From NCBI GenBank assembly GCA_036674765.1, contig JARVKI010000102.1, positions 62,001 through 126,000 on the forward strand: a DNA stretch of 64,000 nucleotides, given 5' to 3'. Positions within the stretch are counted from its first letter, which is position 1. Each line of letters begins with the position of its first letter. The notes below the pieces were generated by a model that made no database searches, was not told the DNA's origin, and worked only from the letters and a program-made list of their open reading frames with translations. Source of the stretch: Seiridium cupressi (taxonomy: Eukaryota; Ascomycota; Sordariomycetes; Amphisphaeriales; Sporocadaceae). The position numbers were made by a program, and so were the translations under genes. Shown piece by piece: positions 23,702 through 28,590 of this stretch.

Positions 23702-25383
23702 ATGGCGACCGTTGCCCTGTACGGCCTTGAGGTCCCCCCCGTGGGCGTCTTGGTTCCTGCTCAGGCTGAGGACAGCATTCCCAATGCCTCCGTAAGTCTA
23801 TTCCACAGGTTTTCTCTCGGCGCATGCCGCACATGAGCATATTTCGCAAATGCAGCAGGTTTCATTCGAAGGCTGCGCGTGAGCAATAGCTGGCACCCAT
23901 CCACTAACACAATGGGCAGTACCGCATCACCATGGCTGCTCTTGATCCCACCGAGGCCCCTGAAGCTGACGAGGAGGGCAACATTCCTGACAAGCCCCGT
24001 GCCACTCTGAAGCTTGTGCGTCAGCGGTATCCCGACCTTGATGACGAGCTCGATGATGAGTATCTCGAGGCCCTGATGGGTGGCTCCGACGACGAGGAGG
24101 ATGACAGCGATGAGGATGAGGCCAATGGCGGTCCCAGCGACCCCTCCAAGTCCAAGAGGGCCAAGGCTGAGGCTGCTTTGCAGAAGCTCATCGAGGCCGC
24201 TCAAGAAGAGGGAGAGGAGGACTCAGATGACGAGATGGCCGACGCTGACGGCAAGTCCAATGGTGTCAAGAAGGCCAAGAAGGGCAAGGAGCCTGCCACT
24301 TCGAGCGATGACGACGACGACGAGAGCGTCGACTCTGATGCCATTGACTTGGAGGAATTCGTCATTTGCACTCTCGACACCGAGCGCGTGAGTCCATTAT
24401 GCCCATACCAATCTTCGACGTGCTAATTTGTACTCTAGAACTACCAACAACCTATTGATATCACAATCGGCCCCGATGAGAAGGTCTTCTTCCGCGTCAC
24501 AGGCACCCATGCCATCCACCTGACGGGCAACTACGTGATTGACGGTGACGAGGACTCCGAGGATGACTCTGAGGATGAAGACTATGATGACTTCCCCAAC
24601 CAGCTCGAGGAGATGTACGGTGAGGGCTCTGATGAGTCGGAAGAGGATGACCTCGACGGCCTCGAGGATCCCCGCATCACCGAGGTCGAGTCGGAAGAAG
24701 AAGCTCCCAAGTTGATCAAGGCCAAGAAGGGAAAGAACAAACGCCCAGCTGAGGAGGAGGGCGAGAGCCTTGACGCCCTGATTGCCAAGGCCGACGCCGC
24801 CGAGGACAAGATCAGCAAGAAGCAGGAGAAGAAGCTCAAGAACAACAAGGGCGAGGCCGTGGAGGTTGAGAAGGAGAAGGCCAAGGCCGATGCGAAGGAG
24901 AGCCCCAAGGACGCCAAAAAGGTTCAGTTCGCCAAGAACCTCGAGCAAGGACCGACAGGACCAGCAGCTAACGCTGAGAAGGGAGCAACCCCAGGTGTCA
25001 AGGTCGTCAAGGGTGTCACCATCGATGACCGTAAAATCGGCAAGGGTCGTCCGGCCAAGAACGGCAACAAGGTCGGCGTCCGTTACATTGGCAAGCTTCA
25101 AGATGGCAAGGTTTTCGATTGTAAGTGTTGATCCCTCTTCCCCGACTACACTGTCTACTGATGCTGACCTGGCGCAGCCAACAAGAAAGGCAAGCCTTTC
25201 ACATTTGCCATCGGAAAAGGTGAGGTCATCCAGGGATGGGAAATCGGGCTGGAGGGCATGCAGGTTGGCGGCGAGCGCCGCATCACCATCCCGCCCAAGC
25301 TGGCCTACGGCAGCAGGTCTCAGCCTGGCATCCCCGGAAACTCCACCTTGGTGTTCGACATCAAGCTGCTGGAGATCAAGTAA
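23702..25383 (+). CDS. Nucleolar FKBP-type peptidyl-prolyl isomerase (Fpr3/Fpr4 type)
   Basis: Histone-chaperone/prolyl-isomerase of the nucleus and nucleolus; yeast Fpr4 isomerises prolines of the histone H3 tail. Exons 23702..23791, 23920..24387, 24439..25120 and 25178..25383 give 481 residues. The N-terminal nucleoplasmin-like domain begins [15 protein letters not shown] and is interrupted by acidic tracts ([26 protein letters not shown]). A Lys-rich middle follows with many KKAKKGK-type clusters. The C-terminal FKBP domain covers about 375-481: [35 protein letters not shown] and PPKLAYGSR, ending [10 protein letters not shown]. Active-site residues (Tyr, Phe, Asp, Trp) are present. Intron 3 splits the Ser codon after VFD. 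Length and domain order match the family. Confidence 0.95.
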
Positions 25384-26727
25384 ACTGGTTTCCTGACGGC
25401 TTGCATGAGAAGCTGTGTATTTCCATCTAATACCCTCATTTCCTTTTGCAGATAACTCTCTGGACTGTACTATGGAAGAGCTATCTATGATTCTTTGCGC
25501 TGTGAGGTCTCCGACCTGCGCGAGTCTGCGATGATCCGGTCTTCTCCCAGACATGGGAAGCAGATGCTGCTGTTACAAGGGATGACGAGGTCTAGCATTG
25601 CATCACAGGCGTAATAAAATTTGATTTCTCGGGGTGCTGGATTTCTTCTTAATGCGATCATTCAGATCGCTTCGCTCCTGCTTAGGTAGCAGATAGATAT
25701 ACTCGGATTAATACAGACATGTGTCAATCATATCTCATACCTGCACCGCCATTTTGACCAAGTTGACGGCGATATGACGACGATAGAGAGATCTCACTCT
25801 TCCTGCTCTTTGCAATCAGGCACACAGTTGCCCTAAATCAAAGGCGCCGTTCTGATCACATCTGATACGACTTTTCCTGAAGGGACGGCCCATCGCTCTT
25901 GGCGCCCTCTAAATCTTGTGGTCAATGTTACCCGTGTAGCTCCGGGTCTGAAGTAATGCAAAGCCAAGCAAGTACAATACGGCAGACGTTGCATTATCAT
26001 GCGTTATGTCATGCACACAAATTCCAGGGTAACAGTTGCCCACATGAGTAGATCGCAATGATTGGAGAAGGAGAATGCCGGAGACAGGATGTGCTGCAGC
26101 GATCAAGTGTCGGGACTTGCCCGTGTATTCGAGTTTTGTTTGTGCGTTGACGCAGGAATGGACACTCAATACACAGCACCAAATTGCCAAGCCATGACAG
26201 ACCCGGGGAAGACTGCCCCTTTTCACATGTTTCCCTGTCCTGCCCTGTCAGGAACACGATGCCTGCGACTGCCATTTCGTTGCGCTTCCACATCGCCAGT
26301 CTATGGTCTCGCAGTGCTCCTGCACTGGGTATATTTTCTCTGAAGAACAGGACGGACACCTACGGTGCCAATAAAGGCAGTAGCGTCTGCCCCAGGCGTC
26401 TTGAACTGGACCGCTTTCTTCGGGTTAAGGTCTGGACGTGGCTTCCTGGAGAGTAAACAGTAGGTCACAATGCCAGACACAATACGTCACGTCAAGTAAC
26501 TACCACCATCAAACTCGCAAAGCTCCCATCTTTCTCCATCTTCTTGTCATCTTCATCAATCACGGTTCCGCTCGATACCCAGTATTGCCATTCCGTCTTC
26601 TTCTATACTTTGGACGTCATCAACTACAGTCCCGCTGGATTTCCCAGTCTTATCTTCACATCTCCTTCTGTTTCTCCTTTCTTGTTTTTCTTGGGAGGGG
26701 CGGTCTCGCTGCAGTGTCTTCACAATA
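25384..26727. other. Intergenic, no gene seen
   Basis: About 1.3 kb between the FKBP gene and the kinase uORF, with no convincing coding or RNA signal. From about 26500 it becomes pyrimidine-rich, consistent with the kinase promoter and leader. Confidence 0.55.
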
Positions 26728-26874
26728 ATGACCGATCCGCTCATGAGATTTGCACTCCAGCTCATGATCTTATGGCTCGTTCTCCAGATTTTCTTGTTTT
26801 TCCTGATGCTGGAAGACCGCAGCAAGTGGAGAGAAATGCACTTGCGACAGGCCAAGAAATCACCCTCGCCGTAA
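26728..26874 (+). promoter_or_regulatory. Upstream ORF (48 codons) in the kinase leader
   Basis: An ATG in strong context (A at -3) opens a 48-codon frame encoding a hydrophobic peptide (FALQLMILWLVLQIFLFFLM core). Its TAA ends 2 nt before the ATG at 26877 that I choose as the kinase start. It overlaps the weaker in-frame kinase ATG at 26772. The arrangement suggests reinitiation or translational control. It could instead be chance leader sequence. Confidence 0.45.
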
Positions 26875-26876
26875 CT

Positions 26877-28590
26877 ATGGCACCAACAGTCAAGACCGCC
26901 GAGAGAGCGGCTGCTGCTAAGATATACTTCGAGACACATTATCACGACATCCTCACAAAGCCCGACCCGAGATCCCTGCGTCTGCAATACCTCGAGGCTC
27001 AGCTGCACCACAGCGAGCTCTCGAGCGAGCAAAAACACGCCAGACGTGACATGTTCTACCAGACTGAATCCGATAATCTTCGTGAAACGCGAGTCCTCAA
27101 GTCAAGAAGTTTCTGCCCAACTTTGATGGGTTTACCAGGCAAGTTGACGGACAAGTATGAAGTTCTCAAGATCCTAGGCAAGGGTAGCTTCGGAGTTGTT
27201 CGACTGGTGCGGCAGAGAGCACCGAATGATCCAGATGCCCGCTCGACACCACCTGCTGTCTATGCTATGAAGGTAATTCGCAAGTCTGCAATGCTACGTA
27301 CAAGCCAAGAGGGCCATCTTAGAGCAGAGCGAGACTTTCTGGTCTCATCTAATGGATCCAACTGGTGAGGCCCTATACACCAGCCGGCGGAGGTCGCAGA
27401 GCTAACGTCGACGTGGCAGGATTGTCCCATTGATTGCAAGCTTCCAAGATCCTGCCAACTTGTATTTGGTTATGGAGTACATGCCGGGCGGCGATTTCCT
27501 CGGCCTTCTCATACGCGAGAACATCCTCAGCGAGCCCGTGGCCAGATTTTACATCGCGGAGATGATATTGTGCATAGAGGAGGCTCATTCTCTCGGATGC
27601 ATTCACAGAGACATCAAACCTGACAACTTCCTCGTGTCCCCTTCCGGACATCTCAAGATTTCAGACTTCGGACTGGCATACGATGGTCATTGGTCGCACG
27701 ATACCAGTTACTACCACACTCATCGGTACAGTCTGGTTCATAAACTCGGTCTTTCCATCGAGGGTAATGCCCAAGATCAATCAGAGGGCTTTGGTGGCAC
27801 TATGAGATGGGCTCGCAATGTGGCAGAGGGCATGAGGAAGCACGAGCGCGAAGAAGGTCAAAGCAGCTCAGTCAACCACCGCCACGAACCTCTCCTCAAC
27901 TGGCGCAACCGGTGCGGAAATCGTACTGCCGCTCGATCGGTTGTTGGCACGAGCCAGTACATGGCCCCTGAAGTGATCCGCGAAGGTGACTACGATGCGA
28001 GATGCGATTAGTGGAGCCTCGGCATCATCTTGTACGAGTGTCTCTATGGCCACACGCCCTTCCTCTCCGAGGCAGGTGGTCGCCAGGAGACCAAGCGCAA
28101 TATTGTTAACCATCAACAGACCTTTGCCTTCCCGTACCGCCCCCTGATATCCCACCGCTGCATGGAGCTACTGTCTCAGCTAATCTGCGAAAAGGAGCTG
28201 CGACTGTGTTCTAAGCGCTATCAGGATTTCAGGGGCTATGCTGTATATCCACAAGACGCCGAAGACATCAAGGCACACAAATGGTTCCGGGACATACCCT
28301 GGGACCGGCTTCATCTCATCTCACCCCCATTTGTACCACACATCTCCAGCTTGGCCGATACACACTACTTTGACGAAGAGGAACCTATCTCGGATTGGTC
28401 CGAGTCGCAAGCTAGTAATGAAACAACAGAGACTGTGCGGAAGAATGGAAACAAGGAGCGAAAGAGGCCTCGAGATCGGCTTCTGAGAGATCGCCAGACA
28501 AAAGAAACCGTGATGGAAATTCGGAAGCGGAGCGCATTCTTGGGATACACGTGGACTAGGGTGGCCGGCCGAGAGTTTGCGGCGAACTGA
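26877..28590 (+). CDS. NDR/Cbk1-like AGC kinase with in-frame TAG in the kinase domain (PUK1-like)
   Basis: Exons 26877..27364 and 27420..28590 (55-bp intron restoring SNW-IVPLI) would give 552 residues if the TAG at 28009-28011 (codon 360) is decoded as Trp, or 359 if not. Everything around it is intact. There is an N-terminal Mob-binding helix region, a glycine loop GKGSFGVV, a VIRK lysine region, HRD (225-227), DFG (245-247), a ~100-residue NDR-type insert, and VGTSQYMAPEV. Then CD[TAG]WSLG occupies the AGC motif DWWSLG. The same frame continues 193 codons to an NDR-type hydrophobic motif FLGYTW. No intron can remove the TAG. In Fusarium graminearum the perithecium-specific kinase PUK1 carries UAGUAG in its kinase domain that A-to-I editing changes to UGGUGG. 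I infer this is its counterpart, with only the first Trp codon as UAG. The start choice (26877 over 26772) rests on context and the uORF. A plain nonsense allele is the alternative. Confidence 0.85.
28001..28026 (+). promoter_or_regulatory. Predicted hairpin presenting the TAG in its loop (candidate editing site A28010)
   Basis: GATGCGA (28001-28007) pairs with TCGGCATC (28019-28026), giving 7 base pairs with one bulged G. The 11-nt loop holds T-TAG-TGGAGCC. The adenosine 28010 is preceded by U and followed by G, the favoured context of fungal A-to-I editing, which also favours hairpin loops. The fold was drawn by eye; no energy was computed. Confidence 0.5.

What the first reader, a model, noticed from the sequence alone, without database searches (positions are those of the whole stretch)
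26877..28590. NDR-like kinase with an in-frame UAG at the DWWSLG tryptophan: candidate A-to-I edited gene (PUK1-like)
The frame is open and family-like on both sides of TAG 28009-28011, which replaces the first Trp of the AGC motif DWWSLG (context CD-TAG-TGG-SLG). Downstream coding continues for 193 codons to a normal NDR hydrophobic motif, so neutral decay is not evident. In Fusarium graminearum, PUK1 carries tandem UAGUAG in its kinase domain that are changed to UGGUGG by A-to-I mRNA editing during sexual development. Here only the first is UAG and the second is already TGG, which would be an intermediate state in that history. Unedited mRNA would yield a 359-residue kinase lacking its C-lobe and hydrophobic motif; edited mRNA gives 552 residues.
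Basis: partly seen in the sequence, partly recalled or inferred. Interest (0 to 1): 0.92.

Follow-up and report, generated by a model that had tools for sequence, protein, structure and literature searches.

The report
Kinase gene with editable stop codon
A fungal kinase gene carries a stop codon in its middle at what appears to be the place where related fungi erase the stop by RNA editing during sexual reproduction, so this is probably another case of a known trick rather than a broken gene.

Summary
In detail: an NDR kinase gene (26877-28590, one 55-base intron) has an in-frame TAG at 28009-28011 in place of the first Trp of DWWSLG, and the frame stays open and family-like to 28587. It is the PUK1/stk-21 orthologue of a Seiridium-like fungus: nearest relative Seiridium cardinale, one copy found, grouped with PUK1 relatives and not with COT1, beside the same FKBP gene as in two Hypocreales. 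UAGUGG is the state reported, and shown edited in perithecia, for Neurospora crassa NCU03242; so it is neither new nor clearly an intermediate. In 212 relatives this codon is the least occupied residue of the kinase domain (59 of 212). Among rows with both flanks, gene models skip it in 65 of 68 Xylariales (wide sense) and 43 of 44 Hypocreales but in 0 of 27 Leotiomycetes. The part after the stop shows no excess change against Pestalotiopsis fici. A-to-I editing that corrects the stop is the best explanation; editing in this species is untested and the hairpin test did not support it clearly. Verdict: new member of a known kind.

The parts
26877..27364 (+).
   Evidence: S. cardinale P0001 starts at the equivalent of 26772 and has Val at the equivalent of codon 1. 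Exon 1 alone matches no Pfam family at 1e-3
27365..27419 (+). 55-nt intron GTGAGG...TGGCAG
   Evidence: The one GT-AG pair that passed in the scanned stretch; family alignment continues across it
27420..28587 (+). Exon 2: rest of the kinase domain and the AGC-type C-terminal tail
   Evidence: Pfam Pkinase on 27421-28008 at 1.1e-30; on 28012-28587 at 1e-05, 25.5 bits, below the curated cut-off of 31.7 when taken alone
28009..28011 (+). In-frame TAG at the first Trp of DWWSLG; putative A-to-I editing site at A28010
   Evidence: taken as equivalent to the edited UAG of N. crassa NCU03242 and A1831 of F. graminearum PUK1 as described in PMC4817773 (passages)
28588..28590 (+). Normal stop codon TGA of the full-length frame
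27943..28011 (+). Stretch equivalent to the piece skipped in the S. cardinale gene model; as an intron its 3' end would be the TAG itself
   Evidence: GTTGGC...GATTAG, 69 nt, in frame, giving the junction ARSV|WSLG of P0001
23920..25377 (+). Extent of the match to the neighbouring NPL/FKBP-type peptidylprolyl isomerase gene (not gene bounds)
   Evidence: tblastn of the first 500 residues of the fused models P0136 and P0144: 57% and 54% identity; PF17800 match at C102:86439-86537, i.e. window 24439-24537

Best explanation
This is the PUK1/stk-21 orthologue of a Seiridium-like sordariomycete. Its genomic UAG is kept and is corrected to UGG by sexual-stage A-to-I mRNA editing carried out by the Tad2-Tad3-Ame1 type of machinery. 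Without editing, translation stops after residue 359, before helix F, and gives an inactive fragment; edited mRNA in fruiting bodies gives the full kinase. Shown here: the stop, its position, orthology, shared gene order with two Hypocreales, the recurrent skipping of the same codon in related gene models, and lack of excess change downstream. Inferred: that editing occurs in this species, its stage, the machinery used, and the inactivity of the fragment.
For: TAG in place of the Trp codon at the site taken as the edited one. Tree position and FKBP neighbour. Codon 360 is the least occupied kinase-domain residue in 212 relatives: 59 of 212. Of 179 rows with both flanks, 122 lack it, 53 have Trp and 4 Tyr; lacking it are 65 of 68 Xylariales, 43 of 44 Hypocreales, 12 of 20 Sordariales, 1 of 2 Coniochaetales, 1 of 1 Glomerellales, and 0 of 27 Leotiomycetes, 6 Magnaporthales, 5 Diaporthales, 1 Chaetosphaeriales and 5 unnamed rows. 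N. crassa, reported with UAG, shows the skip; Pyricularia oryzae, reported with TGG, does not. After the stop 191 of 192 residues match S. cardinale, before it 328 of 337; mean identity to 185 of 207 outgroups in residues 386-492 is 0.646 for the window and 0.620 for P. fici, whose model keeps Trp-Trp. Context U(-2) U(-1) A G(+1) U(+2) G(+3) G(+4) fits five of six published preferences. COT1 of the same genome keeps TGGTGG. Tad2-like and Tad3-like genes (my reading of motifs) and three DUF726 (Ame1 family) genes are present.
Against: No RNA was available. The hairpin preference is not clearly met: probability of a hairpin loop at A28010 is 0.99 with 20-nt flanks, 0.09 with 30 and 0.02 with 50; with 30-nt flanks 62% of 66 other UA sites of the same transcript score as high or higher, and the 61-nt fold is no better than shuffles, z 0.09. 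Which DUF726 gene is Ame1 was not resolved. PF04769 (mating-type alpha box) was not found, though its control rang nowhere, so sexual competence is not shown. The relatives' codons are inferred from protein models, with one named positive and one named negative control. Claviceps paspali is reported with TGG, yet all 12 Claviceps rows here, none named C. paspali, lack both Trp: a lineage difference or an error of the proxy. Identity is lower after than before the stop for several relatives, e.g. P0002 (86 of 107 versus 217 of 244) and N. crassa (63 of 107 versus 169 of 238), though P. fici, without a stop, shows the same general drop to outgroups.
Confidence: 0.85

Rival explanations
1. The stop is real and unedited: the gene is a recent pseudogene or makes only a short protein in a fungus that rarely has sex.
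For: No RNA evidence; the gene is shortened at its N-terminus and lacks a C-terminal insert; the alpha-box mating gene was not found (control silent).
Against: Frame open for 192 codons after the stop, 191 of 192 residues identical to S. cardinale, which also seems to carry the stop; no excess change after the stop compared with P. fici.
Confidence: 0.08
2. The stop lies inside a real intron, as public gene models have it.
For: The S. cardinale model and many others leave the stretch out.
Against: The spliced protein would lose the APE motif and the start of helix F (motif roles recalled); the donor GTTGGC is poor against the usual fungal GTRAGT (recalled); the 3' end of the missing run varies (residue 360 in 25, 361 in 24, 368 in 24 of 122 rows); in F. 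graminearum cDNA showed the predicted intron to be wrong (PMC4817773 passages).
Confidence: 0.03
3. Sequencing or assembly error at 28010 or a rare allele.
For: One assembly only was read here.
Against: An independent genome, S. cardinale (P0001, differing at 10 of 529 compared positions), has a gene model whose skipped piece ends on the same codon.
Confidence: 0.02
4. UAG is read through by ribosomes or a suppressor tRNA rather than edited.
For: Would also give a full-length protein; not tested here.
Against: UAG followed by U is not a leaky context known to me (recalled); N. crassa, F. graminearum and F. verticillioides orthologues are reported as edited here.
Confidence: 0.02

Closest known systems
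Neurospora crassa NCU03242 (stk-21)
   Same: Orthologous kinase with UAG at the first and UGG at the second of the tandem codons, edited in perithecia (PMC4817773, passages seen)
   Different: Its model (P0184, 908 aa) is longer; editing shown there, only inferred here
Fusarium graminearum PUK1 (FGRRES_01058)
   Same: Same gene and, by the paper's equivalence with N. crassa, same codon (A1831); needed for normal ascospores; edited in perithecia
   Different: Two tandem UAGs there, one here; its own sequence was not among my named rows
Fusarium verticillioides FVEG_01191
   Same: Orthologue with one edited UAG
   Different: UAG at the second codon, not the first
COT1/CBK1 (canonical NDR kinase)
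   Same: Same kinase family and motifs; paralogue in this genome (L008)
   Different: TGGTGG intact; far off in the tree

Membership tests
PUK1/stk-21 orthologues | Groups with PUK1 relatives, not COT1 | tested here: met
   FastTree of 214 rows from residues 1-335 and 386-492: window with S. cardinale (98*), inside a starred set of 9 rows, the other 8 all Xylariales; COT1 of the same genome, the only outgroup row, on a 2.34 branch. The program warned that COT1 and Verticillium P0091, both long, were joined. N. crassa, Fusarium and Pyricularia relatives are among the rows
PUK1/stk-21 orthologues | Conserved gene order | tested here: met
   NPL/FKBP gene just upstream on the same strand, as implied by fused models of Fusarium longipes and Stachybotrys chartarum; two comparisons only
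PUK1-like premature-stop-corrected genes | In-frame UAG in the coding region with open, conserved frame after it | tested here: met
PUK1-like premature-stop-corrected genes | Stop at the same codon as in edited orthologues | tested here: met
   By inference: the edited sequence reads UGGUGG, and none of the 55 relatives with Trp-Trp here has a second Trp-Trp; the N. crassa model skips this place. The published A1628 lies 57 nt beyond the place expected from P0184 without introns, which one intron would explain (not checked)
PUK1-like premature-stop-corrected genes | U at -1 and favoured neighbours | tested here: met
   Five of six positions preferred; +2 U is neither preferred nor named depleted
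PUK1-like premature-stop-corrected genes | Edited A in a hairpin loop (a preference: over 62% of sites) | tested here: inconclusive
   Met with 20-nt flanks, not with 30 or 50; the paper's own measure uses 30-nt flanks
PUK1-like premature-stop-corrected genes | A-to-G change in sexual-stage RNA | not testable with these tools
   No RNA reads held
Fungal mRNA editing machinery (Tad2-Tad3-Ame1) | Tad2, Tad3 and an editing-competent Ame1 in the genome | tested here: inconclusive
   Tad2-like L024 and Tad3-like L030 by my reading of motifs; DUF726 matches at three places. The Ame1 copy and its MV500-501 site were not identified, and Tad2/Tad3 are general to eukaryotes (recalled)

The most novel reading that the evidence does not exclude
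The UAG of PUK1 is not a slip repaired by editing but an old, kept switch: nearly all Xylariales and Hypocreales sampled, and over half of the Sordariales, hold a stop at one of the two Trp codons, so the kinase is locked off at the RNA level outside the sexual stage across much of Sordariomycetes, with a few lineages returning to Trp or escaping to Tyr.
Probability: 0.4. Interest if true: 0.6.

Novelty: new member of a known kind. Interest (0 to 1): 0.35.

Why it matters
It adds a Seiridium-like case to the first described edited stop codon of fungi and points to a cheap survey: annotation scars at one codon suggest that the stop is near universal in the Xylariales and Hypocreales sampled and absent from the Leotiomycetes sampled, in line with the reported origin of Ame1-dependent editing in Sordariomycetes. 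That makes 'adaptive switch or repaired accident' testable with public DNA and RNA data.

Tried and rejected
Hairpin prediction gave opposite answers for different flank lengths and was not counted for the reading. PF04769 told nothing about sexual competence because its control rang nowhere; PF00145 gave six matches at four places, but I could not place the edited site of RID. A TP6A_N match (PF04406, 38 of 62 positions) only says that a Spo11/topoisomerase-type gene may be present. Ame1's MV500-501 could not be located in the DUF726 genes. The idea that the state is an intermediate towards UAGUAG was rejected. A second S. cardinale sequence (P0002, 79%) suggested a duplicate; in this genome one copy was found (such counts are lower bounds). 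No DNA of relatives was read: the DNA collections open to me are prokaryotic, viral, plasmid or E. coli, the metagenome cap was 0, and I scanned none of them. A first alignment (120 rows) was replaced (212 rows). No structure was predicted.

Papers. I saw passages by term of PMC4817773 (with its abstract), PMC5381528, PMC11156358, PMC9600606 and PMC11087585; all other papers only as search listings. A search for PUK1, editing and Xylaria found 0 papers. One for at least three of A-to-I, RNA editing, Seiridium, Pestalotiopsis, Xylariales gave 16; only two of these hold the words A-to-I and RNA editing, a circRNA review and a Fusarium transcription-factor paper. I make no wider claim of absence from print.

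Row selection. The 212 rows are the best 120 hits of each of three searches, merged, chosen by likeness, not at random, and each stands for a cluster at 90% identity. 33 of 212 rows that lack a flank were left out of the 179-row count. In one search my pattern labelled four Podosporaceae-like rows with Tyr-Trp as 'junction|W'; they are not junctions. In the outgroup comparison 185 of 207 rows passed the length filter. In one search the cut of the N-terminus failed for P0005 and P0010 (nearly whole proteins were searched), so the N-terminal test rests on P0003, P0004, P0006 and P0007, and the C-terminal insert on P0003 alone.

Full report
What is there. The window comes from a 45.4-Mb genome in 228 contigs. 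The kinase gene reads from ATG 26877 through a 55-nt intron (27365-27419) to TGA 28588-28590; codon 360 is TAG at 28009-28011 in GAT-TAG-TGG-AGC. The product before the stop is 359 residues; 192 follow it. A single alignment to CBK1 covers residues 6-506, and the motifs GKGSFG, AMK, HRDIKPDN, SDFG and APE are in the sequence (their roles recalled). The stop falls at the first Trp of DWWSLG. Pfam finds Pkinase on both sides of the stop in exon 2, the part after it below the curated cut-off when taken alone, and nothing in exon 1 alone.

Who it is. The best relative is a Seiridium cardinale protein (P0001, 94% over the whole query); next are a second S. cardinale sequence (P0002), Pestalotiopsis fici and Truncatella angustata; so the organism is Seiridium or close to it. 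One such gene was found in the genome; the next best place is 52% identical and is COT1 by my reading. In a FastTree of the window, 212 relatives and COT1, built without residues 336-385 and after 492, the window sits with S. cardinale inside Xylariales, and COT1 is on a branch of 2.34; the program warned that COT1 and a long Verticillium row were joined. All 14 group labels need 15 changes where 13 is the least possible, so the relatives sort by taxonomy as orthologues would. An NPL/FKBP isomerase gene matches at 23920-25377 on the same strand; Fusarium longipes and Stachybotrys chartarum models fuse the same two genes in that order. The gene is therefore taken as the orthologue of PUK1 by sequence and by place.

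What is known. From passages of PMC4817773: F. graminearum PUK1 has UAGUAG edited to UGGUGG in perithecia; N. crassa NCU03242 has UAG at the first codon only, edited; F. verticillioides has it at the second only, edited; Magnaporthe oryzae and Claviceps paspali have G's in DNA. The window's UAGUGG is thus the N. crassa state. That these codons are the DWW Trp codons is my inference: none of the 55 relatives with Trp-Trp there has another Trp-Trp, and the N. crassa model skips this place. Passages of PMC5381528 give the neutral-evolution view, of PMC11156358 the review of premature-stop correction, of PMC9600606 the sequence and hairpin preferences, and of PMC11087585 the Tad2-Tad3-Ame1 machinery, whose interaction arose in Sordariomycetes. 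The review states that genome-wide editing was not identified in apothecia of Botrytis cinerea, a leotiomycete.

A scar in other genomes. PMC4817773 describes that automated annotation hid the PUK1 stops in a false intron. I used this as a proxy. Among 212 relatives residue 360 is present in 59, the lowest figure of the kinase domain; outside two variable stretches (117-124, 309-317) and residues 337-435 around the stop, occupancy is 203-212. Of 179 rows with both flanks, 122 lack it, 53 have Trp and 4 have Tyr. Lacking it are Xylariales 65 of 68, Hypocreales 43 of 44, Sordariales 12 of 20 (4 Trp, 4 Tyr), Coniochaetales 1 of 2, Glomerellales 1 of 1, and 0 of 27 Leotiomycetes, 6 Magnaporthales, 5 Diaporthales, 1 Chaetosphaeriales and 5 unnamed metagenome rows. 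Gaps of 5 or more residues in the other seven 50-residue stretches occur in 0-33 of 179 rows, against 123 in 331-380. Of two named controls N. crassa shows the skip and Pyricularia oryzae does not. Against the proxy: C. paspali is reported with TGG, yet all 12 Claviceps rows, none named C. paspali, lack both Trp. In the S. cardinale model the missing piece equals here a 69-nt stretch whose last two bases are the AG of the TAG. By my pattern, models resume at Trp in 22 of 73 Xylariales and 3 of 66 Hypocreales rows and just after the second Trp in 11 and 24; in 37 and 38 the motif is skipped altogether and in 3 and 1 it is intact. This hints at first-codon stops in the former and second-codon stops in the latter. 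At least 14 state changes (skipped, Trp, Tyr) are needed on the FastTree. The codons themselves were not read; gene models from one pipeline are not independent.

No sign of decay. After the stop 191 of 192 residues match S. cardinale, before it 328 of 337 compared. Over 185 of 207 outgroups the window averages 0.696 in residues 92-335 and 0.646 in 386-492, P. fici 0.703 and 0.620. Against several single relatives the window is less alike after the stop than before it, for instance P0002 (86 of 107, 217 of 244) and N. crassa (63 of 107, 169 of 238); P. fici, without a stop, shows the same general drop to outgroups.

Mechanism. Shown: the stop, its place, orthology, lack of excess change. Context is U U A G U G G from -2 to +4; five of the six published preferences are met. 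Hairpin evidence is mixed: 0.99, 0.09 and 0.02 with flanks of 20, 30 and 50 nt, and 62% of 66 other UA sites score as high or higher with 30 nt. Tad2-like and Tad3-like deaminases (by my reading of motifs) and DUF726 genes at three places are present. Inferred: editing in sexual tissue makes the full kinase, absence of editing leaves a dead fragment.

Verdict. The wider pattern across Sordariomycetes is the more interesting lead.

Noticed in passing
P0195, P0196, P0198, P0210 (two Cladorrhinum, Podospora fimiseda, Triangularia setosa): These relatives read DYWS instead of DWWS. Tyr codons are one step from TAG but two from TGG, which suggests an ancestral TAG that escaped to Tyr.
   Followed up: partly
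window 25378-26876 and 28400-28587: The gene lacks about 220 N-terminal residues, and 116 residues before KERKRPRD, that P. fici has; tblastn found no convincing match in the window. S. cardinale P0001 (564 aa) is short as well.
   Followed up: partly
window 26728-26874: A 48-codon upstream ORF in another frame (MTDPLMRFALQLMILWLVLQ...) ends two bases before ATG 26877.
   Followed up: no
P0002 (Seiridium cardinale): A second, 79% identical kinase under the same species name, also with the DWW region missing; duplicate or other strain or species not resolved.
   Followed up: no
L020/L022, G000:C14:402359-403445: One of three DUF726 genes has GFGAG where the other two have GYSLG, so the putative catalytic serine is missing.
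   Followed up: no
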